Origin: Deuterostichococcus epilithicus
Taxonomy: Eukaryota > Chlorophyta > Trebouxiophyceae > Prasiolales > Stichococcaceae
Assembly (NCBI GenBank): GCA_033439295.1
Contig: JAVTLE010000011.1
Coordinates: 496,082-560,081, forward strand
Length of the DNA stretch: 64,000 nucleotides
Direction of reading: 5' to 3'
Shown one piece after another: positions 3,957 to 64,000 of this stretch. The notes under the pieces are model-generated. The model was not told the origin of the DNA. It searched no databases and saw nothing but the letters and a program-made list of their open reading frames with translations. The translations under genes and the position numbers were made by a program. Position 1 is the first letter of the stretch, and the number at the start of each line of letters is the position of its first letter.

Positions 3957-6900
3957 ATGCCAGTCGGCAAATCGCACACGGCCTCACGGATTGCACTGCG
4001 AGCAGTCTTTGCTGGCATTACCGTCCTGCTGTCGGCCTGCTGCACAGCGCTGCCCGCGCAGCCACAGTGGCAGCGGCAGTGGCGGCACAATCAGTGCGAC
4101 ATTGCAGCCTCGAAGGCTGAGGAGCTTGATGCTCTGCACGACCTGGCAGGAGAGGCATCCAGCCCCACGGCGAAGCCAGCAGCAGGGCCTGGACCAGCAG
4201 ATGTAGCGAGCACGAGCAGCGACGCTCTAGGCCGACTTGCAGGTATGACTTCTCAGCGCTGCAACCTGCTGCATCAATGCTGCATATGCACATTGATCAC
4301 CATCCGAAAAGGCGTCGGAAGTGGGCTATCAGCAGTGAAGCATCAGCTGACAAAAGTGGGCTAGCAGAAGCTCTGTTGAAAGTGAAGCAGCCAACGCAGC
4401 TCGGCCACGCCACCAGTGTTCAATAAGACGCTCCCTAGAAAAGATTTGCCGGAAAGAAATTTGGTTGCCCCCCTGAACAGGACCCTCGAACATTCCCGTC
4501 ACGGCAATCCTTCAGCCGGGCGAGCTTGGGCCCCGCCAGATGTTTCCGTCTACTCGCAGCCGTTACAGGGTAGTGGGCCGCCAGATGGCGGGCGATGTGT
4601 CGCCGCAGTTGGCGTCTGCGCTGCGGCACGCCTTCAGCACTTTTCACAGCCTGCTGCAGCTGCACACGCAGGCGCGCCTGTGACTTAATTGCTGTCGTAG
4701 TCTGCAGTGCCGGCTGCCACAGCAGACCTTGCCGCCAATGAAGGATCTACTGTACAGATGGATGACGGAGCTGGTGACGGTTGGTGACAGCATCTGGCAC
4801 ACACAGGCTGATTTTCCGCTGCGCCATGTCGCTGCCTGCACCTCGTGCGTGCAATCAGGCAGCGGGAGCGAAAACATTGAGCAAAATTGAGCTGATCCCC
4901 AGGTGCAAGTGTGTCCGGCGGCCCCGGCGCCTGTGCGACTCGGTCCGCTGCAGAAGTACCCAGCAGCAGCAACAGCGGCGCCAATGTGCCAAGTTACCTG
5001 GGACGACAGGAGTGCCACAACATCCGCCAGTTTCTCGGGTGAGAACCCGCAAATTATCGACCTAAATGCGAGGACTGCGACAGGCAGCAGCCTTTCGGGA
5101 ATAGCCAAGGAGGTCATCTTACCAGCGCCCGCCAGCAATATATTTCAAACCGCCGAAATGTGAGATTCGCAAACATGCCTCCTTGAGGCATCTGCAGATG
5201 TTCGCTTCTGTAGCACCACCAAACATTTGGCGGCCTACTTTCAGTCTTGGCAGCCCCCTGCTGCACTTTTCTCCAGTGGCGCCACGAAGCCGAGTCTGAG
5301 CTGTGGTTTGCGGTGTCCGCACACAGACCATGGCAGGATCGGTTCTGGCAACGGCAGCATCGGCACAGAGACGGAACAGGAGGACTTTGCAGCGGTTGTC
5401 GTGGTGGCCACGACATATGTCACGACCAGCTCAGTGTCGGTGCCCAATGCGCAGGCATGCACAGCACAGCCCGCCCAATGCTGCCACTCTGATGAGCTCC
5501 ATTCATGTATCCACAACATCGCTTACACAGCTGCCAGTTTCGGCATGCACGCTGCCATGCAATTCTTCTGTCACGATCGCGCGCCTCAGAACCTGCAACC
5601 ATCCATACAGGCGGAAACTGGCTGCAATACACCCGTTTGTCTTGCTGCTGTCCACAGCCGAAGTGGGGCGAGATGCTGTCGTCGTTCCTGCCCCGCGCAA
5701 TGGACGCCCAGGCCTTCAACGTACGCCCCTCTGCCACTGTAGGATGTGCGCACTCCAAGCTACTCTGTTGCGCATTCTAGGCTTGTGCATCTATGGTGGC
5801 ACCAGGCCAAACGGCAACGCAGCTCATGGCCAGCGTGCCAAAGCCGGTTGTGCGCCCATGAGCTCAGGTGCCGCTGGCCCCATCCCGTCCAAGCAGTTGC
5901 AGGGGGGGGAGGGGGCTGCCTTTGACATATCTGTTTTCCATTTCTGTGTTGTACTTGTGCAGGTGGAGTTCCTGCCAGAGTACCGGCAGCTGCTGCCCAA
6001 TGCCGTGAGCATGTACATGCGGCTGCCACCGTCGCACACCAGGAGGAGCCAGAGCGACTTTGTCGTCGATGTGCAGGTGACGGGGCTGCGCCAACAGTGC
6101 CAAAGCAGCCGCATCCGTCCCTGCTATTACATGAGCGAATCTTGCAAGTCATGACTTGCAGCTTGATTGAATTCGATTCTGCAGGTGTCTGTTGCCAGGT
6201 CCTTGCGGCAGGTGTGCTAGCTGTGTCTCCCCAAGTAGCTGCCTGACTGGCCCCGCTTCCGAGTCGCTGGCCTGAAGAGAGGTTCGCAATCGATGCCACA
6301 GGTTGCAGGAGCTGACCCTGATGCCATCGCCGCCAGCATGCGGACGCAGACAGCATTGCAGGTGGAGGCTGTCCATAGACTTGCAACGCAAGCTTCAGCC
6401 GACACACGCATGTCCCAGAGCTACGAAGCCGTAACAAGCGGTCGTTGCTATCGTCTGGCAGGCCGGGCTGCTGCAGTGAGCCTTGTGCATGACCCGCCGC
6501 TGGTCAAGAGCACTTGGACCGCGATGACTGCAGGCGGCGGTGTGCGCGGCCACCCCGGAGATGATGGCTGTACTGCCGGTGGAAGTGCTGCCAGATGCAA
6601 GAAGCGGCACAGGCGCCGCCATGCGCTTCCATGTCAGCACCAGCCACGAGCCGAACTCGTTCTCTGCCCAGGTGCGCACAGCTGCGACTTTTGGGAAAAG
6701 ACCGCTGCTGAAGCCATTGTGTTCGGGGCCAGACAGGAAACCGAGGGTGAATGGGCTTGCTCAAACAAGAGTCCCAAAATCAAACATGACACCGCGCCGG
6801 TGACGGCTGCAGCCAGCTGCAGCTGGCCCTTTACGCCCTTGCAACTGCCAACGATTGGTGCGCCCCCGGTGCAAAACTCCAATGCCTGATAGGCAAAGAT

Positions 6901-9900
6901 AAAGACAAAGGCTTTGGTGCTTCGTGTGCGCAGGATCTTGAAGCTGCGCTGGCGGCAGCGCTGCCAGCCGCGGCCGCAATCAGGAGCTTGTGCGGCATCG
7001 TCACTGTCGCTTCTGTACGATATGCGCCAGAGCTATACCCTTTCCGGCAGGTCTGGCCCTCACTTAATTTACCGTTCTTCTCGAAGCTCGGTCCCCCTGG
7101 CAGCGCTCCCATCTACTGAATGCCACCTCCACCATCATCACGCGGATGTGGGAACTGCACAGCCATATGGGCCAGTCTGCTTGCAACAACATACCAAACT
7201 CTAGCGGCTCGTACTGGGCAGTGCCGCTGACGGAAGGCTTGAGCACACACTGTCCGCGGGGTTTTCCGTGATTGTATATTGCTGACGGCGATCTCAGCTG
7301 CAGCAAACCAACACTCCTGTCGGTCTGCTGCCTGCTCGCAGTGGCCGCAGCTGCAGCGGGATGGGTTCGCAAGCCGCCGCCTGACAGACGTCCAGCCGCT
7401 ACCGCCGCCGCCGAACGGCCCGAGCAGGCGCAAGCTCACCACGGCCACCGCCCTGTCTGGAATCCTCACACTGGTCCTGAGTGAGCTCATTTGCCAGCAG
7501 CCTCCTCAGCCGCGCATGCGACTTCCGTTCATTTCGAGGCCACCAACCGCAGACCCCACGCCTCGCCTCGAATGCTGCTTGCGAGAGCTGCTCATCGGCT
7601 GAAGCATGGCTGCCGAAATCACAGTCCAGTGGTGTCGGCGCTTCAGCAGGCGCTTCGATGGGCAGTATGCAAGGCTGGGGCGGCAAAGAGCATGAAACCG
7701 CATGTGGCACGCAAGACCCGAAAGCGGCAGCTGGGCAAGGCTGGAGGAAGCACAACAGCTTGCAGACAGCTGCACGCCGCAGGGGTTTCAATGGCCGCCA
7801 TGACGCCAGTGTAGCTTATCCTCCCGGAGATCATGTCCTCCTGTGCTGGAGCCCACATCCTATGTAATGTTGCACACAGTGCTCGTCCCGAGGAGGCGGT
7901 GGCGTGCTGGTCAAGCCGCCGGCCTCAGCAGTGATGCCGAGTTGCCCCCAGGTCCGGCATCATCACACAAATCAGTTGCGAGCGTCTCAGCAGTCATGCT
8001 TGGTTACACGGCAATGCTTACGAGCTGCACCCAGGTCCGGCATTATCACACATCCCGGCTGCGAGCGTCTCAGCAGTCATGCTTGGTTACATGGCAATGC
8101 CGGCGATCTAATGATTTCAACACCATGCCACCCGACCCAACATATATCACGGGGCTTTTGTGACGATGCTGCGTATTGCTGCCTGACGGAGGTGGCCAGT
8201 TAACATTCAAGGAACCCGAGGGAGGGATCAGGGTGGTGAGGCAAGAAACTGGCTCATCAACCTGCCGGAGCAGCGGCGCAGTTTGGTTACCCAGCAGCTG
8301 TCTCGATCCTGAGTGCAGAGCTCGAGGCCTTCGACCGGAAGCTTCAGGGATGGGCATTGCGGCCGCACGACATCACCATCTGCACCAAGGAAGACGGCAG
8401 CGACTGGCTCATTGGCGAGGGCGCCTATGGCAAGGTGTGACCGCAATGCTGTGATTCCACGCCATCATGCCCGAGGAAAGGGCTGACGAGGACACCTCCT
8501 TCATGCAGCAGAGCTGCCATTTCGATATGCCGTTAGGTTGCCGCAGAGTAGGGATGTTGCTCCGCTATCCCGCCGCAGCAGCACTGACGATTGCCACTTA
8601 GCGGTGCATCAGCGCGGCCGACTGTGCGATGCCTCTTGGCTCTGTCAGCAGGCCGTCCAGCAGCACCACAGCCGCTCAGGCGCCCACGGAGACAGCGCCC
8701 TCAAGCTTCGAGGCTGCCTGGTTCACCACCTGAGCGGTGCGCAGGTGTTCAAGGCGATGCGCGGCGGCGTGCAGGACGTCGCCGTCAAGCAGCTGTGTGT
8801 GCACGGGCAGCACGACATGGACAGGTTCATTGAGGTACGCTGTCCCTCACGATCCTACTCGCCCCTTACAGCCGTGTCATATGCGCGCTTGTTGCTGACG
8901 CCCTCTGGCGCCACGGCACGCACGGCTCCTCCCTGCATGGTGCAATGGGAGCCCAGAGAGGGGTCGGCGGCCTGCAATGGAAAGTGCTTCGGACCAGGGA
9001 CGATCCTTGGGCTGTTTCCCTGGAGACGCTGAGCTCCCCCACATGGCTTGACTTCACTCGCTGTTGATCAGTATTGACACTGCAACTAGACTCCATGATT
9101 TGGACCACCTGCCTCCATGTTGGCGGCACAGGAGGTGGGCATCCTGAAGGGGCTCAACTACGACCGCAACATCGTGCAGTTCTACGGCGCCTGCTTGCAG
9201 CCTGGGCGCGACCCCATGCTCGTCTGCGAGTACATGGAAGGTTTAGTGCCTCCTTTTTATTAAACATTCCCCATGCGCTCATTTGCTGCACAGGCAGGCT
9301 GCCCAATACGGTGTCCGTGAAGACCACGACACCCAGAATGCGCCTGGCGGCAGCTGCCGGCAGGTGCTCTGCTGGCTGGCGGTGATGGCGGCCCTGTCAG
9401 AGGCTGACAAACATAATCCTCGCGACAGGGCAGCCAAAGCCGCTTCAAAACACTGAGTCGATTCCTCCGCCAAAATGCAGGCGGCGACCTGTGCAGCGCG
9501 CTGCAGAAAGACCCCGAGCTTGGCTGGTACATAAAGGGGCACCGGATCGCGCTGGACATCGTACGAGGGCTCTACTTCCTGCACTCAAAGGACGTGCGCA
9601 CCCCCCCCCCACCTTTCCCCTTCCGCGGCAAACAAACAGCCGCTAATGCTGCCTGCTGCTCAGCGACAGCTTCATTGGGCTTGACCCTGCCCCAGCAGGC
9701 GACATCATCGACGTGATTAGACAACGTCGTGCTCATCTGGCTGCCAAGCACCACAGGCGATGGCCTTTCCACTGTCAGCGTTGCTTCGACCGAGTGCCAG
9801 ACACACAGGAAGCTGCAGGTATGTGCCCCACGCCGCAGGTGCTGCACAGCGACCTGAAGTCCAAGAACGTACTGCTGAATAGCAGTCACGAGTGTGCCAA

Positions 9901-12900
9901 GGTGAATCGGCCGCGATTCTTCTGTGCTACTGCAAGCGCAAAGGCTGATGCATGCAAGCAGGACTTTCGACTCGGTGTCATGCACTTGCTGCTGTGGTCG
10001 ATGTACGCACTGCCCGGAACCAGAGTAGCGGCTCCTCCCTGGAGGCGCCTTAGCTCTGGCTACACAATGGGACTTGCACAAGCAGCAGACGCGGTGCAGC
10101 AGCACAACGGCAGGTTGCTGACTGCTTGGCGCTGAGCGATGAGCGCAGATCTGCGACGTGGGACTGTCGCGGGTGCTCGAGGACCGGGGCCGCCAGTCCA
10201 ATGTCATGGCATGTGCGTTTTGCGGGATCCTCCTATGCGAAAATAGGTTGCTACTGGCTGCCATGTGTCAGAGATCTGGGGGCAACTTCGAATGTGACGG
10301 CCTGAGCAGCCGCCGCCAACAGGTCTTAATCGACTTCCATTGCTGTACGGACATCCCATTGTAGTGCCCGGCGGCACCAATCCAGGTCACCCGCATCCTC
10401 ACAACAGAGCTGCTGTGCGGGACGCCGCCGTCCAACTAATGAGGCGGTTTTGAGAATTTTTGATAAGGTATTCACACGTGGAACGATGTTTTGTTGTAGG
10501 GACCTTTGCCTCTGCCGCACCTGAGCAACTGTTGGGCGAGGAGCTGACACTCAAGGCCGGTGAGACTGACGTCCAGCCGCATCTGCTTGGGTGTTGTTTG
10601 ATCATCATGTGCCGCAGGGGCCCGGCACCACGAACCACAAAACATTAGTGTTGGTAACCCGTTCGAACCATCCTGATCGATCCAAATCATCAGCATACAC
10701 TGACTCGCACCTCTGGCGTGCTCTGGCAGACATATTTTCACTGGGTGTGGTTCTCCAAGAGGTAAGTGCGAGATCAGGACAGCTGTCATTGCAGTGCAGA
10801 TTGTCTGGCCGCAGCGTTTTCGATGGTTGATACCTGCCGCCTGTGCGTGGTTCCCAAACCACTTGCTGAGACATCGCCCTGCCACCGGCAGGCGCCCAGC
10901 TGCGCTGATCCTAGCTACCATCGCACCTGAAGGCAGAGGATGAACCAGGATGAGCCACAGCCTGTGCTGCGCTTACAATGGCACATCTGCCCACTCGCTG
11001 CAGATCGTGACGCAGACAGTGGCGGTGCGGCGAGGGACGCTGTGCGAGCCGCAGGTGCCACGCGATTGCCCCGCCGACGTGCTGAAGCTCATCAGGGAGT
11101 GCATGGCGCTCGTCGCCGAGGACCGCCCCGACACCAAGGTACGTGCTGCGGCGGCCGGCGGGTCAGCCTGGCGACTGCAATTTCGGACTTTCAAACTGTC
11201 AATTTTAAATTGTGACAATTTCGAGCCCTCAGTGTGCACGTGCTTCAAGAGCTTGATGGCATGCTTTGAGAGAGGTTGCGGCGCTTTTGGCTGCTGTCGG
11301 CAGTCTCTGTGCCCGCAGAGCTCGTTGCCAAAACACCGTGTGGCCCTGGTTTGCAGATCATCCGTTGCAGAGTGTGGTCTGATGTGACTTCTTCAGAGGC
11401 GTGACTTCTTTCTTTTGACGCATGCAGGAGGTGTTCGACCGGCTCAATGCGTCGTGCGAGGCACACCTCCTCGATTCAGGCGCGCCGCAGGAGCTGGCGG
11501 CCGACGACGGCGACTCGGCGACGCAGCGTCGCGAGACGATCGAGGCCATCGCTCGCGAGTCTGGCGCGCTCCCCGGTGTCTGCAGTCCCGATGGCGTCGT
11601 CCAGCCGGCCACGCCACCACAGCCAGGTGCGTTGCTGTTGCAGGAAAGATGCTTCGATTCTGCAAATGTGCAACTGGATGGCGAGACGGCATGCACATGG
11701 TTGCGATTCGTGAGTCACGTTTCATTGAGCCTGCAGAAGCGCCGCCGCCAAGGGACACCAGGCACAGGGACCGGACCACCAGCCACAGGGGCCTCTTCAG
11801 CCTCGCCAGCAGCGAGGAAAGCCCGCCGGCGCATCCGAGCTCATCCGGACAGCAGCGGTCTTTGACGCAGCCGGCGCAGCACGACTTCACAGGCCAAGGG
11901 CGCCGCACGCAGGTGGGGCTCGAACGAGGTGTGCTGGCGCACTGTGTTGCCGCACCGATGATTGCGCCGAAGGCTGGCCGGCAGTCAAACACAGCATAGC
12001 GGCCCCTTCAGGACGGCGCCAGGCAGAAGGCTCACGGACTGTGCGTGCATAAGATGACCCAGATCCTTACCAGCAGTGCAAGCACCATGGATGGTTTGTC
12101 ATTTCAAGCTCCTCATGTGCCTGCCTGCAGCTGGCGCCAGAGCTGTGGCGCGACCTGCTGGTATTGCGGCGGCGCACCTTCGATGCGCCCCGCCCTCATG
12201 GCCCAGAGCTGCCACCGGAGGCGCTGCCAGCCCTGCAGCGGGCTTTCACCTGGCCACCCAAGTGCGCCATGACCTCACTTTGCGCCGCACTGTGCGTGTT
12301 CCCGAGCTTTCTTGTGGAGCGGTGGAACATGCTGTGATGTCAGACGAGAGTGTCCTGCTCGGCCGAGGTCTGCAAGCTCGGCCGCCACCACAGGAATTGG
12401 TGACTGCCATTCACTGCTTCTGCCCACAGGGCAGACTGCCAGCCTGCAGCACTTTAGCAGCTGCCTTCAACTAGCTGCCATGCCCTGGCCCGCCCTGCCC
12501 TACCCTGAGTCTGCATCAGCTACTGCAGCGTCAAAGGATCTGCCTCATGCAAACCCAGGCACCGCCAGCCGAAGCCTAAAAGCAAGGCGGAGCGCCGCAG
12601 CCAATCCGCGGAAGCCCTGGCGGAGGCTGCAGCCTGTGCGCGCTTCTACAGCCCGCAACATAGTGGAGGGTCAGACGGCCGCGGCATGCAGGGTGAGACT
12701 CGGCGGTCTGGCAGCGGCAGTGGCGCCGTGCGGGAGTCGCTGGAGAGCGGCTGCTCGATGCTGGTTGCGGGGCTGCATAGTGTGCACGATACTTTCAGCG
12801 GCCGTGCGGAGCGGAGCGGCGGCAGCAGCGGCATCTTGGCTAGACTGCGAGGCCCATCGCCGCTGCCCCACAGCTGGCGGCCAGGGGCCAGGCAGAAGCC

Positions 12901-13264
12901 GGCAACAGCTGAGGCGGCCGTGCCGGCGCCAGCAGCGGCATTGGCGGCGGCCGAGGTGGCCGCATTATTCGACATCGCCAAGGCACGAGGCCGTACGGCG
13001 AGTGGCAGGCCGCAGCAGGCCGGCAGCAGCGCTGATGACGACGCCGGGCCCAGCAAGCGCCACGGCAGTGCCAGCCAGCCTGCCGCCATCCGTTCAAAGC
13101 CGCAGACCGCCTCTCTGTCACGCCCCTTTGCTAAAGTGGCAGAGAACAGGCGTTCTGAGGGCAGTGGTGCCGGCGGCGCACCAGACAAGGCAGCGGCGCA
13201 GCCAGCGGCGAACCAGAGCCCGCCGCCAAATCCTTTCCAGGACTGGGCTGGTGGCTGGCAGTAG
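3957..13264 (+). CDS. Receptor-like TKL kinase 1 (complete)
   Basis: Predicted single-pass plasma-membrane kinase with extracellular N-terminus; ligand unknown. Exon 1 (3957-4241) gives a signal peptide (MPVGKSHTASRIALRAVFAG, hydrophobic core, then A-x-P). Ectodomain modules shared with the other kinases: about 4485-4690 (AILQPGELGP, then SPQLASALRHAFSTF), about 5335-5450 (DFAAVVVVATTYVT), 5963-6076 (VEFLPEYRQLLPNAVSMYMR), about 6304-6420, 6535-6680 and 6934-7050 (DLEAALAAALPA). A weak membrane segment lies about 7400-7477 (TALSGILTLVL). Kinase exons: up to 8434 (IGEGAYGK), 8745-8834 (VQDVAVKQL), 9132-9240 (NIVQFYGAC), 9481-9593 (GGDLCSAL), 9839-9901 (VLHSDLKSKNVLL), 10149-10212 (CDVGLSR), 10500-10559 (TFASAAPEQ), 10730-10760, 11004-11138, 11428-11626. 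The tail is Ala/Ser/Gly-rich, with the last exon about 12545-13264 ending NPFQDWAGGWQ and TAG. Catalytic Lys and Asp are kept; HRD is HSD and DFG is DVG. Confidence 0.82.
7947..8100. repeat. Tandem direct repeat, 83-bp period
   Basis: Two near-identical copies start with CCCAGGTCCGGCAT and end with CAGTCATGCTTGGTTACA..GGCAATGC. They begin at 7947 and 8030. They lie between the membrane exon and the first kinase exon of kinase 1, in what is probably intron. No coding role is evident. Confidence 0.85.
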
Positions 13265-14712: not shown

Positions 14713-14783
14713 TGAACCAAGAGGGAATCGAACCCACGACATACGCTTGGAAGGCGGATATGTTACCACTACACCATTGGTCC
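14713..14783 (-). tRNA. trnG-UCC: tRNA-Gly (anticodon UCC)
   Basis: On the minus strand the 71-nt cloverleaf has a 7-bp acceptor stem (GGACCAA with TTGGTTC, including one G-U), a D loop AGTGGTA, an anticodon loop CTTCCAA reading UCC, and a T loop TTCGATT. The discriminator base is A and no CCA is encoded, as expected for a nuclear gene. One mismatch is seen in the anticodon stem and one in the T stem, so it could be somewhat degenerate. No intron is visible. Confidence 0.85.
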
Positions 14784-26800: not shown

Positions 26801-27113
26801 CAGTGGTTCGTGTCTACCCATCCGGGTGTGGCAGCACCTTTGGGCCACGATCGGAAGGTTGCGTCTGAAACGAGATAGGACAGTGCTTTCCGGGCATCGT
26901 GCTGGCAGTTGGCAGTTCAAACTCCTGCCATCGAGGATCCCGCGCCTTGCTGCAACTCAAGCCAGACTCCGCCTTGCTTTCACCAGGTGGCGAGACGCTC
27001 AAAAGGGCGGGGTCTGCGGAAGCGGAGTCGCCGCCCAATGCACAACTGTACACCGCCCGCCTGCGCTCGGCGGCGCCGGCGGCGCAGCCGTCGGGCCTGG
27101 TGCTGACATCGGC

Positions 27114-27163
<50 letters not shown>

Positions 27164-51683: not shown

Positions 51684-51685
51684 AT
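51676..51685 (+). promoter_or_regulatory. ATATATATAT at the kinase 4 start
   Basis: The run directly abuts and overlaps the first ATG of kinase 4. If it is a TATA box, transcription would begin inside the signal peptide, so either the run is not a promoter element or the true start codon is further downstream. The signal-peptide quality argues for the annotated start. Confidence 0.25.
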
Positions 51686-54600
51686 GGCAGCATGCGCCGG
51701 CAAGGCATTGCTGTTCGCATCGCTGTTGCTGCTGGCAGCATTGGCGGCGGCGGCGGCGGCGCCGCCAGCGCCGCTCATCCCTCCATCAGCCCAGGCTGGC
51801 TCGGCACCCGACCGGCTCGGGCGGCAAGTAGAGGCTGTTAGCCCCTCAAACCAGCGCGGACCTGTACTTCGGCTAGACGACGATGGCTCGTCCTCCAGGA
51901 GTTCGCGGCGGCGCAGGAATTTGGCTGCGGTGGCGCCGCCTCAGCCGCAATCAAGTACACCTCAGACACTGGAGCCACATCCACGCCGTTATGTTGTCAG
52001 TACTTCAGTCGACTGACACCCAGGGATGTGACTGTTGCCAGTGAGCGGCGGCCGAGGATCTTAATTCTGCTTTCCTCGCCGCAGTCTCGCCCGCCGCTGT
52101 GCCTGGCGTGATAGCATCGTCAATCCTACGGCCTGGAGAACTGCCAGACGGAGCCGGAGCTCCATTTCTGAGCATCACATACCGCGTTGGTACTTGCCTC
52201 CTTGGTGCACCCTCCAGTGTTTTTGTGGTGTGCTCGCTCACCCTGGTGGTTGGACTACTTGTAGTGTGAAGTTGTGGCCAGCGTCACGCCTCGGATTCAA
52301 AGTGACTCTCCTTGCGTGCATGCAGTTGGGGAGAACGTGCTGCCTGTGACCGACAGACTGGAGGATGCAATCCAGCGCTGCTTCGAAACCGTCTTCTCCC
52401 TCTTGAAGTTTGCGGTGAGCTTGCACGCGAGCCATGCGCCGGCGGATCCGCTGTAGTTCTGTGTGTTGCTCTTCACGTTGGTCCTGCCGGTCGTCAGCTG
52501 GCGGGGCCCCTTGCACCTGGCTTTTTCTCTGCCTCATGCCTTACTTGTGTTTGCTCTGTCTGAACATCAGGTGAGCACTACCATCGGCCCAGTCACCAGC
52601 CCAACAGTCACAATCGTGCCTGCAGCCATGCTCAATGGTGCGAGCCTTGAGTCAAAATTGACAAGCCTGAAGCCTGGCCTGCTCCCAGGGACGCAACGCT
52701 GTGGGCATGCACAGTGGAGTGGATCTGCTTTCGACTCTTGGCGAGTGTCAACACTCCAGTCCATGCCGATGTGGCACACTTGCTGGCGGTGATGATGCAG
52801 CAGGGTGCCAGGAACTGGCATGCCACATGCGCATCACACAGTGTCCGCTCACAATGTTAGCGTCGTGGCTCAACCCCAGCCATGCCGTGCTGTGCAGGCA
52901 ACACAACGGGCCGCAGACCGCCCCCCGGCGGCCGCAAGCTACTGCAGGGGGCGCTGAACACCAACCCCAGCCGGCGAAGCCGTTTCAATGCAGTCAATGT
53001 GCAAGTCACGGTGTATGTGACGCGCGACACCAGTTTCGAGGTTCTGGGCCAGAGGCTACAGGCGGGGCAGCTGCCGGCCCTGGAGCAGAGCATGAGCAAT
53101 TTCGGCTTCCTAGGGGTGAGCGCTGCTTGATGCATCCCTTCAACAACAGCTCCCTCAATCAGGCGCCGCCATGTAGAACGTGCTTGCACAGCTTGAGACA
53201 TCATGAAAAGCATCTGAGAGCGCTGCGCGCTCGCTTGCCTCCGCATCGGTGCATGCCACTGGGTGGCCAAGTGGGCAACCTGTGAGTCTTCGTGACCAGC
53301 CGCATGTTCGGCATGTGCTGCTGGCCAAATGCCACCGCCTTGAGGCACCTCTGCACCCTCCAGCAGCTGGCTCTTGGCTTTCTGCTCCTGCCCTTCAGAT
53401 CGAGCGGCTTGCATGCCGGAAGGCAGTCTGCGTGCCAACTACGAGCCGCGGAGCCTGTGGTCATCACAGGCTGCTGAAGCCCGTGCCTAACCCCTGCTTC
53501 GTGCACTGCAGACCGTGTTCCTACCACAGAATGCTGGATACCTACCGAATGGTGCAATCCTGACAGCGCGCCTGCCTCCAACCTATTTGGGTTTCGAGCC
53601 AACAGAATTTGACATTGTCATCAGGGTGCGGTTGCTTGGGGTATACAATGCTGAGGATGGAACTGCAGCGCAGCAGTGACCCACAGCTGTCGAATTGGAT
53701 GACACCAGGACACGGCCAATGAAGCAACCCGCCCTGCAGCTGCAAGGCTGCCGACTGCGCATCAGAGCTCCTCGTCGTGCACGTTGCCACACGACAGGTC
53801 CTCAGGCCACCCATTCTTGCTGCCCGTGCAGCTGGCCGGCACCAACGTGGCGCCCGCCACTGTGAAAGCGCTGACCGCAATAGAGGTCGTGGTGACAAAG
53901 GCATGTCCCGGCTACATACACGGGCAGCTCCTGAGCGTCGGCCGCACGGCGGATCTTTCGGAGGCCGTTGTCACGCTGTCGCTCACAAGCATCGCCGCCG
54001 ACGTCACCTCTCAGGTGGGGCGGCGCTGCTCCTTGTCCTGTACGCATTCCGCTACGCCGTGCTTGCGCCTGTTTGGTCACAGCTGATGGTGTGCGCATCG
54101 TGAAGCGCACTCGTGAGCTCCAAACATTAGCAACAGCTACCGGCGCCAGGTGCTCGATTCAGGTCCGAGCAGCTCGGCGGCCCCAACTTGCCGGTCGGTC
54201 ACAAACCCTACTTTGAGCCGCAGTGCCCCTCCTAACAGCCACGTCAACACCGCAGGCGTTCGGAAAGCGTTTACAGTCGGCTCTGCAGAAGCACCTGGAG
54301 GATGAGGACACAGCCGGCACGGCGACAGTGATCGTCACCTCTGTGCTAATACCGGCATATGTGGTGAGGCTGTTGTGGGGTCCTGGCAGCAGGACATTTC
54401 TGTGCACGAGGTCCTTCCGACCGCAAGCACGGCAGCGGGCCAATCTGGCTGGTGCCACTGGCGTATTTGCTCGTGCACTGGTGTCTGCCACTGCTTCCAG
54501 GCGCCACTGAATGCGTCGACGATTTGTCTACAGTTGATGCAACCTGAGAGCCAGTGTGCCCTGCGTGCTGAGTGCTTTCCCTCGTCTTGTGCGCAGTTCC

Positions 54601-57600
54601 CGCCTGGTACCGCCAACAAGACGGTATCATGGGTCGATCTGTGAGTGCCCCACCCGGTGGCACCCCGTGCGTGCCTGTGTTTGCCTTACTTCGCCGAAAT
54701 GCCTGGTGATGACAGGCACTGATGTGCTGCAACAGCAGTTCCACACATCCGCCGAGTTGTTCTTGCTGATCAGTTGCGGTCCTGCTCTGGCATCGTTGCA
54801 AGCCCGCAAAGACCTGATCGCCTCATTCCGACTTGTGAAAGGCATGGACACGTTCTCCTGCGGTCATGTGGTGCGGCTGCCACATTGATATGCAATTCAT
54901 TGCCGCAGGCCCGGGGCAGATCCGGACGGCAACACCGATGTCAGAATATCCGCCGGCGCACTTGCTGGCATCTCGGTTGGCATCTTGGTCGCCCTTGCTC
55001 TTGCTATCGCCGCCGCAGGCACGGTTGTGTTGCAAGAGTCCTTCCTCTCACTGCTGCTCTCCTGGCGCCCACCTCATGCACTTGCTGTGCACCCTGATAC
55101 AGTCTGGGGTGGTAACTAGGTTGCGGCGATTTGCCCGAATGTGAACACGTACAAAGGGGCACAAGCGTCACTATGGCTGCTCACAATCCTTGAATGAAGC
55201 GTGTGTGATCCTGCACTTTGCAGCTTGTATCATGCGGCGGCGGCGGCGGCTCAGACGCGCCCTGCAGCAGGGTGCGAATGCTTGGTGCACCTCTGCGATG
55301 AGCCTCACACGCCTGCCCAATGTCAGCATGGACGTCCTGCATGCTGGGACAATCGGAGGACACTTGCAGCTACATGCTCGTGCGCTGCCGGCCGACACCG
55401 CCCTCAACTTGGGCTGTGCTGCTGCATGCAGAGAGCAGCAAGGACGGCGGTGTTGGAGACTTCGACCAGCGGCTGCAGGGCTGGTTCCTGTCGCCCGAGC
55501 AGATCGAGATCTGCAAGCGTGCCGATGGCAGCGATTGGCTGCTGGGAAAGGGAGCATATGGGCGGGTAAGCCCCTTGAGCGTTTTCATCAAACACTGTGG
55601 CAACACCCTGCATAACCCACGAGGATGGGAGAACAATGCCAGATGGCAAGCCGCAAGCCCGCTGCACAGACGGAAATGCATCAGTGAGCCATGATGTGCA
55701 GCTGCCTCTCGGATGCGCTGTTGCAGTCAGGTCGCAGTCCTGGACGAGTAGCGTAGCACCGGCTGACTTCACGATATTCACACTGCCGCTCACCCGTTGC
55801 GCTGCCGACGGCCGGGCACAGGTGTACAAGGCGACTAGGGGCGGCGTACAGGACGTCGCCGTCAAGCAACTCATCCACAACGGCGACGGCCAATTGGCAC
55901 AGTTCGTTCAGGTCAGTGCACTCTTGGGTCCGGGCACCATTGGCAGCAACTGCACCAGTTGCGGTCCAGACCAGAGATTGCAGTTTCCAAGGTTTCAGCC
56001 TGTGCCGCCGCAAGCTGGGCGCTGCTGCTGGCTGTCGAAAATGAGCGGTGCCCCCAGCGGCCTGCAGCTGCTGCCGTCACCCGCTCGCTTGCAAGGGCAT
56101 GGGGAACCCAAGTTGCACTGCAACAAGCTGGACGATAGCGAGATCCATCACCTCCTGTTGCCAAGGAATCCAAATGACAACAGCGACATTGCTGGCTGAT
56201 CGTAGGAGGTGGGCATCCTGAAGGGCCTCAACTACGACCGCAACATCGTGCAGTTCTACGGCGCCTGCATCCAGGACAGCATGCAGCCCATGCTCGTGAC
56301 TGAATTCATGGAAGGCAGGTCCTTCCACCTTCCATGTTGATGCACGAATGTCAACCAAGAGTCCCGCCAGCGCAAATTCGGTTTAACTTACTGGTAGAGG
56401 TTGCTACAGCGGAAGGTTGGCCCTGCAGGGCTCATGCCCTCGCAACCAGCCTTGAACCAGCAGCTGTCCGGTTTGATGAACAGCTGTATCGGATTAGTTG
56501 GTGGCTACTAGGTGGCTGCCTGACCCGCAAGCGCAGATGTGTGGCAGCTTGCTCATGAGACGCACTAGAATTCATGACCAGCCTCGTCCATATGATGCGC
56601 TCAACACGACGAGGTTGGTCACAAAGCGTAACCGCCCTGCCGCCGCGGTGCTGGGGCGTCGAAGGACAGGGGTCCAAGGCCTCCTGCCCCTATGCCTGTG
56701 CCGGCAGCTCTGACGACGGCGTGAGGCATGATGCACATGCTGTTGCGCATCCCACAGGCGGCGACCTGTGCGCCGCGATCCTTGCCGACGACAGGGGAGA
56801 GCTGCTGTGGTACGGCGCCGGGCACCGCATCGCGCTGGACATCGCGCGCGGGCTCTTCTTCCTGCACTCTCACGAGGTCCGTCGCTCCTGCATGCGACAT
56901 CTGCGTGTGTAGCAGGATCCTCGAAGGCGGGCAGTTGCCTCCGGCATGGGCCGCACAGCCGTCCAGCTGCACACGTGCATTTCGAGCTGCACGCCTCCAA
57001 CGTCCAGCTCCAATTTGCGCATCTTTTGTGAGTGTCCTTATCGTGTACAAACAGGTGATGCACAGCGACCTGAAGACTCGCAACGTACTGCTGAACGGTG
57101 CGCTGCAAGCCAAGATCAGCGACGTGGGGCTGGCGCAGCTCATTGACGCGCATTCCGAGGACTCCAAAGTCCTCGCATGTGAGTGTCCACGCTTGATCCT
57201 GAATGAATGACCCAACGCTGCCGTCCACTCAGCAGCCCGCTGCAGTACGTGATCATTACCCTCCCGTCTTCGGCTGCTGCGTCGTTTAAAAGCAAAGTGC
57301 TGGCAGTCTGACACCTCAGTGAATGTAAATCGCAACATTGTGTGCGCTGATCGTTTGATCTTGTATGTTATCGCACACTGCGGCGGGCGCTCGGAAGAAT
57401 TGACTCGCATTGCGCGCCGTGCAGGGACCTTGAGCTATGCTGCGCCGGAGATGCTCATGGCTCAGGTTTGCAGCCTGAAGTCCGACGTCTACAGGTGTGC
57501 GCTTTGGTTGGTGCATGCACCGCAGCTGCTTGGCTTCACGTGCAGCCCCTGCATTCACGACGGGGAGCTCTGATGCCAACAACCCTGACGCTGAAGTCGT

Positions 57601-58944
57601 TTCCATCAAGGTTGATTCCTCGCCGCATTTTGAGGTCATACAGGGCAGACCGCATGAACAACGCAAGATGATCGCACCGGCAGAACGCATCAAAGCAGCA
57701 CGTGGGAAGCTGGGAAGCTGTCCCTGCGCCTGATTTGTAGATGTCTGACAGCGTCTGACCGGACTCTGGATTGTACTGTACTGCTGATCAGTCTCAGTCC
57801 GAGTCGTGGGACCAAAAAGGTGTACATCTGAACGGGTCCGTCTCCTGATACCTGCAGAGCCTGATCCGCTGCTGTGCTGTTTTGCCGCAGCTTTGGCGTG
57901 GTGCTGTGGGAGATTGCGACGGGCGTCACGCCGACAACGCGCGGGTCGCTGCCGCCGCCGCTGGTGCCGCAGCAGTGCCCCGCTGACATCTGGCAGCTCA
58001 TCCAGGAGTGCCTCACGGAAAAGCCTGAGGACCGCCCGACAGCCAAACAGGTGGGGGTCCTCGCTTTTCACTTGCATGCACGTGAAATGCTGGGGCTCCG
58101 CACGGCTGCGCTCGGAAAATAGGTGTATGGCGGCGAAGGCTCCAGCAGGTGCCCAGCAGCTTTTGCGAGAACGTCCTGCACAGCGCTGCGCGAATACGAT
58201 CAGGTTCCGCTGTATGCACCTATCACATGAATTGCTCCTTCATGCCACCGTGCCTTGTGCGCTTGCCGTGTGCAGTGCTTCGACCGGATGCTGGCGTCAT
58301 GCGCCGTGCATGGCCTCCTGAACAGCGTCGTCGGCTCCGCCTCCTTCGACAGTCTGCCCCGCGGCGAGCCAGTGTCCTCAGGGGCCGACAGCAGCAGCGG
58401 CAGCGGCCAGCGCAACAGTGCCGATCGCCGCCGCCGCACCGGCGGCGGGCAGGGGCGCAGCGCACAGGACCGCGACCAGCAGCCCGAGACCAGCATGTGG
58501 CCGCGGGGCGAGGGCGTCGCTGGCGGTGACGGCGGTTACCTGGGTACCAGGCCCCGCGGCGCATTTGTACGCTCCTGCCTAAGTGACAGCGCTCATTCGG
58601 ACGAGTCAGCCGTGACGGCGGCGGCCACCGCCGCCGCAGTCGCCGCTGCGCCACAGCAGGCTGCAAGGCCCCCCGCCGCGCCAAACCCATTCGCACATGA
58701 CGCCCACGAGGGCTGGAGCAGCGCGCCGGATGGGCCCAGCAGCTCAGCTGGAGCTGAGGACGCTGCATCTAGCTCGCTGCTGACATGCCAAGGCATCGAG
58801 GCGGGCGGCGAACAGCAGTCTGCAAACCCTTGGACTGAAGCGGTGTTGCCGTTCTGCGCTGCGCTGCCGCCCCAGCTGCCGAGCTGTGGCGAAGCCGAGC
58901 TGAGTGGTGCTGGGAGGGATGAACCGAACAACGAGTGTCATTGA
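51684..58944 (+). CDS. Receptor-like TKL kinase 4 (complete)
   Basis: Exon 1 (51684 to about 51990) has a textbook signal peptide (MAACAGKALLFASLLLLAAL). Ectodomain modules: about 52085-52190 (SSILRPGELPDGAGAPF), about 52323-52413 (DRLEDAIQRCFETVFSLL), about 52569-52690, about 52898-53116 (GRKLLQGALNT, VTVYVTRDTSFEVLGQRL), about 53513-53628 (TVFLPQNAGYLPNGAILTAR), about 53827-54015 (GRTADLSEAVVTL), about 54256-54363 (RLQSALQKHLEDED), about 54600-54641; membrane segment about 54950-55019 (GALAGISVGILVALALAIAA). Kinase exons: to 55565 (LLGKGAYGR), 55822-55911 (VYKATRGGVQDVAVKQL), 56206-56314, 56758-56876, 57055-57178 (VMHSDLKTRNVLL, ISDVGLAQ), 57424-57494 (TLSYAAPEMLM), 57891-58050 (FGVVLWEIATGV, PEDRPTAKQ), 58276-58944 ending TGA. 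HRD is HSD and DFG is DVG. The intron after 56314 starts with GC and lies inside a hairpin repeat also present in kinase 5. The tail is Ala/Ser/Gly-rich with a PNPF motif like kinase 1. Confidence 0.85.
56307..56344. repeat. Hairpin repeat, copy 1 (kinase 4 intron edge)
   Basis: Arms CATGGAAGG and CCTTCCATG enclose a short loop, followed by TTGATGCA. The left arm overlaps the end of the exon encoding FMEG and its GC donor. A closely matching copy lies at 63331-63368. Confidence 0.8.
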
Positions 58945-59572: not shown

Positions 59573-62500
59573 ATGCGGCGTGGGCTGTCTCCAGCCGCTG
59601 TTCTTGTCATTCTCGCGCACCAGCTTCTCCATTTCCAACGGGCAGCGGCGTCGAGGGGCGTACCGTGCAATGGTAGTGTACCAGCAGCCGTCAGCATCAG
59701 ATCGGCTACCACCAGCAGCGGCAGGGAGAAGGACCCATCGAGTTCGTCGACGACATTCCGCCGTCAAATGGCCCAAGCTTCCGCGCCATCTGGTGCCAGT
59801 GCGCCCGCCGCCGCAGCGCCACTGTATGTAACCGTTTGGCTTCCAGCACACTGGCGTCGGAGGGTCCCCAGTGCAATCCAGTGCTGCAAAGCTGCACAGT
59901 CTACGGTTGACAACTTTCAGCTGTCAGTGCCATGCATGTCAGCGTGTGGTGTGCTGCTCCCTGCCGCAGTCGTGGCCGCCGAAAGCATCGTGGCGGACAA
60001 GGTGCTGCGGCCAGGCGAGGTGCCGCCGGGATCCGGCGCGCTCTTCCTGCAGCTCACGTACAGAATAGGTGCGCACTGTACGGCGGTGCCTGCTGCGGCA
60101 ACCTTACCAACGTTAGCAGGCTGGGTGTCCGCTCGATCAACAAAGCCATGTAATGGCTGCAGCTGCGCAGTGCTGCTGCATGGCAGCATGCACGCCTGAC
60201 AGTGGGCTGCTGCGCTAAGTCCAAAGCTCTTCATGCCTGCCGCTGCAGTGGGGCCAGATCTGCTGCCGATCTCGCCGAGGCTGCTGCAGGCGCTCCAGCA
60301 GTCCTTTGACTCATTTTCTCCGTGTTCAACTTCGAGGCGAGTCTTGGCTGCGTTGGCGCGTGCCGTTATGTATGTTGCACAGTCAGCGGCCCCTTGGCAG
60401 CCCGGAAGCAGCAGCAGGCGCCATTCAATGATTCCTCTGTGCCACTGCGCCCAGGTCAATGTGACTATGCTCGAACCGGCAAAGAGCACTGCAGTCAAGA
60501 CAGTCCCGGCAGCTGCCCTGACATCACAAGGTACGAGCCAGCAGACCTGTAATTGCTCGTACGAGGCATGTTTTCGATCCTCGGACTGCAAGTTTGGCTG
60601 TGCACTGTGCGCTGCCGGCGCCGTGTTGCAGATGGAACCTGGTTCGCTAGCCTTGTACGCTCAAACCACGGGGCATCATGAGCATCATTTCCAGCTGTGC
60701 TGGGAGCAGTGGTACTATGGTGAGCTTGGGTGTTGCTCTGGCCATGTGCTTCGTGGTTGGCAGCCATAACCGTTCGGGGAAAGCAGATTGCGCAGCTGCA
60801 AGTCGCTTGCTGCTGCTGCGGCTGGAGCGCTTGCTCCTTGAACGCTGCGGTTGCGTCTTTCACAAATATACGGTTGCCGGCGTGCAGACGGCAGCACACA
60901 CGCGGCGCAGGGCGCCAGCTCGCGCCGCAGGCTGTAGCAGGGCGTGCTCAACACCAGGTCCGCGGCGCGCCGCGAGTTCCGGGCAATAGATGCCGTTGTT
61001 GGTGTGTACGTGACGCGGCAAACCGTTTTTGAGAGCCTCGGTCAGCGGCGCTAGAAGGAGCAGCTGCAGACGCTGGCCACCTTGATGCGCACTGTGGGCT
61101 ATCAGGTGAGCTGCTTCATCCAGAGCATGTTCATCATGTTGTTCAGCAAATTCACTTTGCCCGGCAGTCTCCAGGACGATTCCGAGCACCGAGCATTGCG
61201 GTCCAAGTCAGCATCCAATTGCAGATGGTGGGGACCTAAGTCACGCCGGCATGGTCGCGCAGCTGGCTGGCACTGGACGTGCTTCGTTCAACAGCTCTTC
61301 TTGTAGGCTGGCGGCACTGCTGCAACTTTAGGCTGGTTTGGAGACTGGTAGTTTCATCGCTGATGCTGGCCGCTGGCGCACATGCAGGCGAGGTTCATGC
61401 CGCAGAACTCTGGGCTCATCAACAACACCATCACCATCAATACGCGGCTGCCTCGATCCTTTCAGAACTTCCAATCAACGACGTTCATTGTCCTGGTTCA
61501 GGTGCGGCCATGATTATGTGCTAAGGTGTCGCTGCTGATGCAGCGACTCTTACGACAGCACCCTGAGCGTGCACAACATGCACTGACCTTTGCCAGCCAA
61601 CGCAAAACCGCTTCACAGTTTACGTGTCGCCCAGCACCTCGATCTCATCATCCACCATGCGGCTCAGCGCCAGCCCAGTGGCGGGTCATCGCAAGTGCTC
61701 CTGCTGGTATGAGCAAAGAACTGTTGGCACATCTGAATATAATGCTGAGGATGGGGCCATCCAAGCCGACATGCGGAGTCAGGGTACTCAGTCCATGCAA
61801 GCACGATTGCGGCGGTGCTACCGTCGCCCACACGACCTCACACACACTGCTGGTGCTCTGTTCGCAGTTGGCGGGGCGCAAAGCCGCACTGGAAACTGTG
61901 GAGGCGCAGACCGCGCTGGAAACCGTGCTGGCTGACAACACGCCGGCCTACACATACGGGACCCTGCTGGGCATAAATCGCACCGCGGACCTCTCTGCGG
62001 CGGTCGTGAGCATGATCCTCACCACGACGCACCCCAACGGCACCTTCACGCCGCAGGTCAGCGGTCCCTCCAGAGAGCGGCCGGGCGTGAGGCGAGGGCA
62101 CTAGCGCCGCCGATTTTCTGCTGCATTGTTGCCAGCATGACAGCAGCATACGCTTGTGGCCGTGCTACCCTTTTGTTGCTGCCGCCCCTGTGATTGCAGA
62201 TGGACATGGGAGCTGGTGCAGGCAGACAATAAGGATTTGCGCTCCAGCGCTTCGTCACCCCTGCTGAGTGAATCCGTCTGTGCCTCGCAGAATCTGACGG
62301 ACCTGCTGCAGCCCACCGCTGCAACACACCTGGCAGACACTGGCGTTGCAGGCAACGCCGCGGTCTTCGTGTCTTATGCGCAGTTTCCGCCCTTTGGGGT
62401 GAGTTGTGCGTGGCGCGCTCCCTTGTGCGTGTGATGATTTGACGGTCTGCAGGCATGCTGCATGCCGCCTTGCTACCGCCTTGGCAAGCCTCGCACAACC

Positions 62501-64000
62501 TAGGCAGGAGCGGTGGCAGGAACCATACCGCCTTGCTCCCGCAAGCCGAGCCTCAGCCAGGCAGCGTCGCACAGAGGTGCCCTTTGACCTGCTGATTCAG
62601 TGCATATGTTGTGTTTCATGCCTGCAGCGCTGAGACCTCACACTGCGTGTCATTCTCTGCGTGCAGGACCCAGCGGCCCTCGCAGCTCGTCCCGTCAGCT
62701 CAGTGCCGCTGTGAGTGCATGCACCGCAATGTGTCCTCGATTTTCCTGCACGCCCGATGGTCCCTCAGCTAGGCAGCGCCCGCAGGGGGTTTTATTCAAG
62801 CAGCTTCCCGAACTGCTTGACATAAGTGCCGTGCCGTGCCTGTCCGGTTTGGTCAGCAGATGCTCATGGAGTACGTGTCTTCTTTACAACGCACAAGCAA
62901 CCGGCAAGCAGCTTCTGTCTTCTCCAACTTTGATGGGTCCGATCTGTGGTGAAGGTTTCCGAATGCCATGCAGGCCTGATATAATTACGAGTGCAGTGGA
63001 GGGTGGTGGTGGCGGTCTGGGCCCTGGGGGCATTGCGGACGTTGCCATAGGCGCGCTGGCTGCCGTGGCGCTTGTCATCGGTGTTACAGGTGATCTGGGC
63101 GCAAACCTGCTGTCAGAGTGGGCAAAAAGTGGGTGACTGCTTCACAGCAGCCTTGGACACAGCTGTGCTGAAACACATGGCAGGCGCCATGACGACCCAC
63201 TGGTTGCTCCATCTTCGCTGCTGACGCCCTGGACTGCTCAGCAGGCTGCAACACCCATTGCTGATATTTCATGGTGGCTGTCCTCGCAGCTGTGCTCATC
63301 CATCGGCGGCGCCGCATAGCACAAGGCTTGATGGAAGGTTGGTTCCTTCCACCTTCCATGTTGATGCATTGAACCTCCTCACGGAAGTTGCACTGTGTTC
63401 TACTTGATGCCTGGCAACAGAAGGGGGGATGGTTGAAAGGGTAGATGCAATTAGATCCACCTGTCTGTGGCGGGTGCGGGACCTGCTTCTCAGCCGACTA
63501 CCCGTACCGACGCTGTGGCACCTCTGGCCTCGCTCGGAAGGGCGCGCCAGCTTCGCCAATGCTGCCGCCCACGTACACGATGCCGGCAAACATGCTGACA
63601 CGTCTTTGCGAGCCCCAGTCCAAAATCAGGTCGCTCAAGACGTGTATCTAAATGTCTGGCTGCAGGCAAGGGCGGGCACAAGCTGGGCGGGTTCGACCAG
63701 CAGCTGCAGGGCTGGTTCATCCCGCCAGAGGTCATTCAAATCTGCAAGCACGCCGACGGCCGCGAGTGGCTGCTCGGCGAGGGAGCGTACGGGCGGGTGA
63801 GGCTTTCCTAGCTACAGGAACGTGACGCGATGCGATGTTGAGGGCAACAGTCGACGCATCGTGCACTGGCCGCGAACGTCCTGTCAACAGTTCACAATAT
63901 TTACGAAGTCTCCCCGTCATGCGGCAGCCAAGGGTCAGGCGCCCCACCCGATAGTGTACCAGACCCTCAATGATTGCAGGCCCGGCGCACTGTTGGGCGC
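59573..64000 (+). CDS. Receptor-like TKL kinase 5 (partial, runs off window; possibly damaged)
   Basis: Exon 1 (59573-59822) gives a signal peptide (SPAAVLVILAHQLLHFQRAA). Modules: about 59971-60068 (VLRPGEVPPGSGALFLQLTY), about 60249-60330 (LPISPRLLQALQQSFDSF), about 60453-60530 (VNVTMLEPAKST), about 60885-61105 (VVGVYVTRQTVFESLGQR), about 61385-61500 (ARFMPQNSGLINNTITINTR), about 61868-62056 (INRTADLSAAVVSMIL), about 62290-62400; membrane segment about 63020-63090 (IADVAIGALAAVALVIGVTG). The first kinase exon ends at 63796 (LQGWFIPPEVIQICKHADGR, LLGEGAYGR) with a good GT donor; the rest lies beyond the window. Two TAG codons fall in the frame of the 60885-61105 module, at 60934 and 61053. 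The first may be intronic, since an AG acceptor follows it at once. The second, in GQRR-TAG-KEQLQ, aligns with Gln in kinase 4. The gene may therefore be decaying, or hold sequencing errors. The membrane and kinase exons look undamaged. Confidence 0.7.
63331..63368. repeat. Hairpin repeat, copy 2 (kinase 5 intron)
   Basis: Arms ATGGAAGGT and ACCTTCCAT, then GTTGATGCA, nearly identical to the copy at 56307-56344. It lies in intron or inter-module sequence between the membrane exon and the first kinase exon of kinase 5. Confidence 0.8.

What the first reader, a model, noticed from the sequence alone, without database searches (positions are those of the whole stretch)
3957..64000. Tandem family of five transmembrane kinases with a shared, unnamed modular ectodomain
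The five plus-strand kinases share the same ordered ectodomain modules: LRPGELP-type, LxxALxxSF-type, VTxYVTR-type, FLPQNxGxLxN-type, TADLSxAVV-type and a last DLxxAL-type. A membrane segment and a TKL kinase follow. I do not recognise the ectodomain. Its alternating helix-strand pattern recalls ferredoxin-like or SEA-like modules, which is inference. A lineage-expanded receptor-kinase cluster in an alga would be a candidate cell-surface sensing system.
Basis: partly seen in the sequence, partly recalled or inferred. Interest (0 to 1): 0.8.

Follow-up and report, generated by a model that had tools for sequence, protein, structure and literature searches.

The report
Green-alga receptor kinases with unnamed ectodomain
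A green alga carries a family of cell-surface-type kinases, many side by side, whose outer part matches no catalogued protein domain, so such algae may have their own set of surface receptors.

Summary
The finding largely holds, with corrections. A gene finder trained on this genome gives five plus-strand genes, each with an ectodomain of about 300 residues and a complete TKL-type kinase. A membrane segment is clear in g2-g6 but not in g1. Gene 5 runs past the window end; a sixth copy follows. Genes 1, 3, 4, 5 and 6 share the ectodomain strongly (leave-one-out 88-193 bits; best of 700 shuffled decoys 10.5). Gene 2 shares it only partly (49 bits). Pfam, NCBIfam and PDB sequences give no significant match to the shared unit. 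It was seen at 12 loci on four contigs, once as a tandem pair, each followed on the same strand by a kinase of one subfamily. Some loci were chosen by their kinase; searches with the ectodomain alone give 9 of 9. Related kinases elsewhere lack it. In one close paralogue pair dN/dS is 0.44 (ectodomain) and 0.17 (kinase). Secondary structure suggests two beta-alpha-beta-beta-alpha-beta halves; the fold is unproven. Best reading: an expanded receptor-kinase family with an undescribed ectodomain. Transcripts, ligand, function and occurrence in other algae are untested.

The parts
3957..13264 (+). g1: predicted leader, ectodomain exons 4481-7050, kinase exons 8319-11626, long tail. No clear membrane segment in this model; may be incomplete or decayed
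31050..41448 (+). g2: leader, divergent ectodomain (residues 198-412 align to the profile), membrane segment from residue 509, kinase exons 34734-36994, long tail
43149..50521 (+). g3: leader, ectodomain exons 43694-46238, membrane segment 46382-46828, kinase from 47108 into the last exon
45819..45950 (+). DLxxAL stretch of g3, missing from my spliced g3 model but matched by the L025 ectodomain
51684..58906 (+). g4: leader, ectodomain exons 52085-54640, membrane segment 54909-55271, kinase exons 55432-58050, tail (stop codon not placed)
59573..64000 (+). g5 (continues to about 66536, outside the window): ectodomain exons 59970-62405, membrane segment 62997-63337, first kinase exon 63666-63796
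53512..53625 (+). g4 example of the 114-bp phase-0 RLP exon; same length and phase in g1 (5963-6076), g3 (45082-45195), g5 (61388-61501), L024, L025, L026
52898..53115 (+). g4 exon with the RKLLQ loop between presumed beta2 and beta3 of the first half; g3 counterpart 44380-44666 (RRLLQ)
57055..57178 (+). g4 catalytic-loop exon: HSD instead of HRD, DVG instead of DFG

Best explanation
The cluster is part of an expanded family of single-pass receptor-type TKL kinases in a green alga. The outer part is an undescribed unit of about 300 residues, probably two beta-alpha-beta-beta-alpha-beta halves. Likely mechanism: the ectodomain binds a ligand or a cell-wall or surface partner, and this changes pairing or conformation across the membrane so that the kinase phosphorylates intracellular targets. 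Shown here by sequence: shared ectodomain, co-linearity with the kinase, complete kinase domains with a non-RD catalytic loop (HSD/HGD/HCD), conserved exon structure, and purifying selection on both parts of one pair with the ectodomain changing faster. Inferred: surface location, ligand sensing, dimerisation, kinase activity.
For: Ectodomain shared far beyond chance. Six kinases with VAVK Lys, alpha-C Glu, HxD Asp, Asn and DxG Asp invariant. By hydropathy, leader in 5 of 6 models and membrane segment in 5 of 6; N-glycosylation sequons in 12 of 14 outer units scanned. Genome searches with the ectodomain alone: matches at E<=0.3 fall at 9 loci (g1, g3, g4, g5, g6, L024, L025, L026, second C13 copy), and all 9 have a kinase of the subfamily next on the same strand. 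With g2, L028 and L029 (found by kinase or window) 12 of 12. 114-bp phase-0 exon in 7 of the 7 non-tandem models where the RLP exon was found (10 models looked at). g4 against L024: 8 of 8 ectodomain and 7 of 7 kinase exons found in order, dN/dS 0.438 and 0.173. The same kinase subfamily carries a ricin-B-like outer part in L027 (E 0.0015, below Pfam cut-off), as expected if the outer part is the variable sensor.
Against: No transcript, localisation or binding data. The gene finder was made here and does fuse neighbours: unforced, it joined the g4 kinase to the start of g5, and the L026, L029, L031 and L032 models begin with part of another gene. g1 has no clear membrane segment; the g5 model lacks GGDL and a clear leader; the g6 model lacks APE and the FLPQN exon; the g3 model misses an exon. 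g2 is only distantly similar. dN/dS below 1 shows no positive selection, and the lower dS of the kinase (0.22 vs 0.37) may reflect gene conversion. In the first leader exon of g4/L024 pN (0.22) exceeds pS (0.10). Non-RD/DVG kinases might have reduced activity.
Confidence: 0.75

Rival explanations
1. Ectodomain and kinase are neighbouring but separate genes that the gene finder fused.
For: No RNA evidence. The unforced run split g4, g5 and g6 between ectodomain and kinase and started g1 late; joining needed a high stop penalty and paralogue motif hints. The finder demonstrably fuses neighbours at other loci.
Against: 9 of 9 loci found by ectodomain-only searches, 12 of 12 in all, keep ectodomain then kinase on one strand, on four contigs and in both orientations. 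g2 and g3 came out as single genes without forcing; L025, L026 and L028 with a mild stop penalty. A membrane segment lies between the two in g2-g6 and, judged by eye, in L025, L026, L028 and L029. The exon between them (54909-55018) is 70% identical in g4 and L024.
Confidence: 0.1
2. The ectodomain is a very divergent member of a known alpha-beta module (SEA, ferredoxin-like or porter-type), so only the arrangement is new.
For: Alignment-averaged propensities suggest beta-alpha-beta-beta-alpha-beta in each half; AlphaFold of one second-half exon (3 sequences, mean pLDDT 62.5, pTM 0.38) gives helix 11-24 and strands 29-38, 45-53. Weak PDB hits to MacB only, best E 0.054 over 53 positions.
Against: Of 9 members 8 have no Pfam hit at E<=10 and one an irrelevant hit at 0.068. 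No GSxxx match at the presumed hairpin in 14 units scanned; 3 matches lie elsewhere, placed by eye. The two halves do not align significantly (hhalign E 0.064, probability 0.9%). The first-half exon gave only a helix at pLDDT 54.7.
Confidence: 0.4
3. These are mainly decaying or inactive tandem copies.
For: g1 lacks a clear membrane segment and has an 83-bp duplication between ectodomain and kinase exons; g5 and g6 models have gaps in the kinase; non-RD and DVG/DMG motifs.
Against: All six kinases keep the catalytic Lys, Glu, HxD Asp, Asn and DxG Asp; open frames over 19 to 24 exons each in the models; purifying selection on the g4/L024 pair.
Confidence: 0.1

Closest known systems
Land-plant receptor-like kinases (RLK/Pelle)
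   Same: Predicted leader, ectodomain, single membrane pass, TKL-type kinase, tandem clusters; the g4 kinase alone matches BRI1 in PDB best (E 2.4e-31).
   Different: Ectodomain matches no LRR, LysM or lectin family. The six-kinase profile scores CTR1 (3.6e-37) and BRI1 (1.4e-36) almost alike, so RLK/Pelle membership is unproven. Chlorophyte rows seen in a review table list 1 to about 4 RLKs per species (passages of PMC10868138).
Raf-like TKL kinases (CTR1 group)
   Same: Kinase profile matches CTR1 (3ppz) at 3.6e-37.
   Different: CTR1 is not, as I recall, an extracellular receptor. Here an ectodomain and membrane segment precede the kinase; HxD lacks Arg and DFG is DVG/DMG.
SEA / ferredoxin-like extracellular modules
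   Same: Strand-helix-strand-strand-helix-strand pattern suggested; next to the membrane.
   Different: No sequence match; no GSxxx motif at the presumed hairpin. Instead an R[RK]LL loop there in 6 of 10 core units.
Kinase-family changes reported in lichen-forming Trebouxiophyceae
   Same: Kinase families totalling 52 members in Asterochloris (passages of PMC6652019); kinase expansion in Coccomyxa viridis (passages of PMC10693582); Trebouxia gene families named LRR receptor-like, chitin elicitor receptor and cysteine-rich receptor-like kinases gain and lose genes (passages of PMC11523091).
   Different: The passages seen describe no such ectodomain; whether any of those kinases belong here is unknown. 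The Trebouxia families named receptor-like mean that receptor-type kinases in such algae are not unheard of. The species of this window is not known here.

Membership tests
Receptor kinase (general architecture) | N-terminal leader, ectodomain, one membrane segment, intracellular kinase | tested here: inconclusive
   Leader by hydropathy >=1.5 in g1, g2, g3, g4, g6, not g5; membrane segment in g2-g6, not g1; kinase in 6 of 6. Topology not measured.
RLK/Pelle | Kinase falls within the RLK/Pelle clade | tested here: inconclusive
   Only PDB scores compared: CTR1 and BRI1 nearly equal. The tree holds kinases of this genome only.
RLK/Pelle | Known plant ectodomain class (LRR, LysM, lectin, malectin) | tested here: not met
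   No match to such a family at E<=5 in six models. g2 has sub-cut-off hits near its membrane stretch (DUF456, E 0.0004, 21.1 bits against a cut-off of 29.4).
Active protein kinase | VAxK Lys, alpha-C Glu, HxD Asp, catalytic Asn, DxG Asp | tested here: met
   Invariant in the 6 aligned kinases. HxD is HSD/HCD/HGD and DxG is DVG/DMG; activity not testable.
SEA domain (PF01390) | Sequence match to the family | tested here: not met
   No match in 9 members at E<=10.
SEA domain (PF01390) | GSxxx self-cleavage site in the hairpin (recalled) | tested here: not met
   14 units scanned (L027 and L031 included): 3 matches, none at the presumed hairpin, judged by eye.
SEA / ferredoxin-like fold | Three-dimensional fold | not testable with these tools

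The most novel reading that the evidence does not exclude
A chlorophyte alga built its own expanded receptor-kinase system, separate from the land-plant receptor repertoire, around a new two-part ectodomain. Tandem duplication and swapping of outer parts (new unit, doubled unit, ricin-B-like unit) diversify it. The recurrent R[RK]LL loop between beta2 and beta3 could be cut by a site-1-type protease, giving a two-chain, force- or ligand-sensitive receptor analogous to SEA-domain receptors.
Probability: 0.25. Interest if true: 0.82.

Novelty: new variant of a known kind. Interest (0 to 1): 0.6.

Why it matters
Chlorophyte green algae are credited with only a few receptor-like kinases each (1 to about 4 in the table rows seen in PMC10868138), so how they sense neighbours, walls, symbionts or pathogens is largely open. 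A family with an uncatalogued, faster-changing outer part and a conserved kinase gives concrete candidates. It may also give content to the kinase expansions reported in lichen-forming algae, and the ectodomain profile makes a direct search of algal proteomes possible.

Tried and rejected
Training a gene finder from long open frames failed, since most are not convincingly coding. The first two self-trained versions collapsed or drifted to tiny exons; the version with stronger splice costs settled and recovers ferritin and SufB genes confirmed by Pfam. A search of viral contigs for an intronless relative could not run. hhalign of the two ectodomain halves was not significant. L031 (7.4 bits) and L027 (1.7 bits) are not counted as carrying the ectodomain; L030 and L032 gave no match. 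Two weak ectodomain matches away from kinases (C7:140172, E 0.39; C11:169497, E 1.0) look like chance and were not followed. Paper searches (SEA domain, RRLLQ, green alga; site-1 protease motifs) gave nothing usable. The site-1 protease motif, the SEA cleavage motif, the Chou-Fasman values and the term non-RD with its link to plant immune receptors are recalled, not from a call.
Full report
The window is part of contig C10 of a 46.8-Mb, 21-contig genome with many light-harvesting gene matches. A spliced LHC protein matches PDB antenna proteins: best a polyprotein-like chain, 9vfj_2 (LHCI-2, E 9.9e-163, organism not shown), then LHCII chains such as 6kac (E 7.3e-114; Chlamydomonas by recall) and land-plant LHCII. 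So it is an alga with green-type antennae; 'chlorophyte' is my inference and the species is unknown here. Because genes have many short exons, I trained a simple gene finder on the window, 200 kb of the same genome and three LHC loci. It settled at a median exon of 118 bp and intron of 211 bp. As a check it recovers ferritin and SufB genes on the minus strand of the window.

Five plus-strand kinase genes were modelled in the window and a sixth beyond its end: g1 3957-13264, g2 31050-41448, g3 43149-50521, g4 51684-58906, g5 59573 to about 66536, g6 about 67687-76582. The unforced run gave g2 and g3 as single genes, started g1 late, split g4, g5 and g6 between ectodomain and kinase, and joined the g4 kinase to the start of g5. 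A high stop penalty and hints from paralogue motifs were needed to get the final models, which is a weakness. In the splice check all junctions had GT or GC and AG except one acceptor of g1 that I had typed wrongly; I corrected it from the sequence. The later g5 and g6 models came from the finder under the same splice rules. Leaders and membrane segments were judged by hydropathy: leader in g1, g2, g3, g4, g6; membrane segment in g2-g6; none clear in g1.

All six kinases match Pfam PF07714 and PF00069 over nearly the whole profile. In the six-row alignment the VAVK lysine, alpha-C glutamate, HxD aspartate, asparagine and DxG aspartate are invariant. The catalytic loop is HSD, HCD or HGD and the DFG motif is DVG or DMG. 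Closest PDB kinases are of mixed type, among them EGFR, a Src-Abl ancestor, CTR1 and BRI1, so the place within TKL is open. In a tree of 14 kinases of this genome (g1 was not caught by the pattern and is missing; L026 and L031 are partial), L027, L030 and L032, in which the ectodomain was not found, group together (95/95), and g3-g6 with L024-L026 group at 94/95, just under the tool's star.

The ectodomain. Profiles built without the tested gene give g1 107, g3 151, g4 193, g5 166, g6 88 and g2 48.8 bits; 700 shuffled decoys reach 10.5 bits at most over all runs. None of 75 control proteins predicted from 16 other places matches at E<=10. g6 lacks the FLPQN exon in its model; g2 lacks several motifs. 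The DLxxAL stretch of g3 is missing from my model but lies at about 45819-45950. Pfam at E<=10 finds nothing in 8 of 9 members and one irrelevant hit (E 0.068) in the ninth. NCBIfam gives three scattered weak hits, one member each, best E 0.024. PDB gives only MacB, best E 0.054. g2 was not in that set; its own Pfam scan shows sub-cut-off hits, the best DUF456 (E 0.0004, 21.1 bits, cut-off 29.4), over its membrane-proximal and membrane stretch.

Genome-wide. With g4's ectodomain as query all 22 matches lie on C10, including a close minus-strand paralogue at C10:423990-426298 and one match at C10:597479. Queries with the L025 and L026 ectodomains add two places on C13. Matches at E<=0.3 in these three searches fall at nine loci: g1, g3, g4, g5, g6, L024, L025, L026 and C13:193341-195487. 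All nine have a kinase of the subfamily next on the same strand. Two matches elsewhere (E 0.39 and 1.0) were not followed. I fetched nine further places, L024-L032, chosen from kinase matches (L024 and L025 were also ectodomain matches). By profile five carry the ectodomain: L024, L025, L026, L028 (two tandem copies, 42.9 and 21.7 bits leave-one-out) and L029 (50.7 bits). Four do not: L027, L030, L031, L032. With g2 and the second C13 copy the total is 12 loci on four contigs, 12 of 12 followed by a kinase; for g2, L028 and L029 this is partly by construction. For the second C13 copy only match positions were seen. L027 has the same kinase behind a ricin-B-like outer part (E 0.0015, below Pfam's cut-off), which suggests exchange of outer parts.

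Exons. The exon with the RLP motif is 114 bp, phase 0, in g1, g3, g4, g5, L024, L025 and L026, and 105 and 102 bp, phase 0, in the two copies of L028; it was not found in g2 and g6, and L029 was not looked at. Two other pattern matches, one in a kinase exon of L026 and one in an L028 exon, were disregarded.

Selection. Between g4 and L024, 8 of 8 ectodomain and 7 of 7 kinase exons are found in order. Nei-Gojobori dN/dS is 0.438 over 298 ectodomain codons (dS 0.37) and 0.173 over 264 kinase codons (dS 0.22). Left out of these sums: two leader exons (61% and 50% identity; in the first pN exceeds pS), the membrane exon (70%), and two exons without a match. So both parts are coding sequence under constraint, the outer part changing faster. 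This is usual for receptors but not proof; the lower dS of the kinase may reflect gene conversion.

Fold. Alignment-averaged propensities (crude, recalled Chou-Fasman values) suggest beta-alpha-beta-beta-alpha-beta in each half. AlphaFold was usable only for single exons: the second-half exon gave a helix and two strands in the expected order (pLDDT 62.5, pTM 0.38); the first-half exon gave only helix (pLDDT 54.7, pTM 0.17). The two halves do not align significantly. The SEA- or ferredoxin-like reading is therefore plausible in pattern and untested in fold. A loop motif RRLLQ or RKLLQ (RRLLLQ in L026) sits between presumed beta2 and beta3 in g3, g4, L024, L025, L026 and L028b, not in g1, g5, g6 or L028a: 6 of 10 core units, two of them (g4, L024) close relatives. 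It resembles, from recall, site-1 protease sites; cleavage is speculation, and how common the motif is in other algal secreted proteins was not measured.

Literature. In searches of the held library no listed title or abstract start describes this ectodomain; no paper was read in full, so absence from print is not established. Passages seen: chlorophyte rows list few RLKs (PMC10868138); kinase families are expanded in Asterochloris (PMC6652019) and Coccomyxa viridis (PMC10693582); Trebouxia has changing families named as receptor-like kinases (PMC11523091). A Trebouxia chromosome-level paper has no mention of kinase or receptor in its main text (find in PMC12712428).

Verdict. A real, expanded family of receptor-type kinases with an uncatalogued ectodomain; new variant of a known kind. 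What it senses, and whether other algae share it, remains to be tested.

Noticed in passing
484-3279 (-): Nine-exon ferritin gene model (Pfam PF00210, E 6.2e-25).
   Followed up: partly
16612-22159 (-): SufB-type Fe-S assembly gene model (PF01458, E 1.8e-74); a perfect 52-bp tandem duplication lies within its span at 20052-20155.
   Followed up: partly
L001, window coordinate about -7853 to -2276 (+): NADPH-oxidase or ferric-reductase-like gene model (PF08022, E 1.9e-17) beside the ferritin gene: iron-related neighbours in a row.
   Followed up: partly
22516-29287 (+): Gene model with a weak forkhead match (E 0.00096, below cut-off; first part scanned only) and a 21-copy GCA repeat at 27114-27177.
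   Followed up: partly
7938-8100 (+): 83-bp tandem duplication between the ectodomain and kinase exons of g1, about where a membrane exon would be expected.
   Followed up: no
L027:883-8789: Same kinase subfamily with a cysteine-rich, ricin-B-like outer part.
   Followed up: partly
window coordinate 86002-91212 (+), beyond the window in L003/L004: Gene model that looks by eye like a PiT-type phosphate permease; not scanned.
   Followed up: no
14713-14783 (-): tRNA-Gly (tcc), the only Rfam match at gathering threshold in the window.
   Followed up: yes
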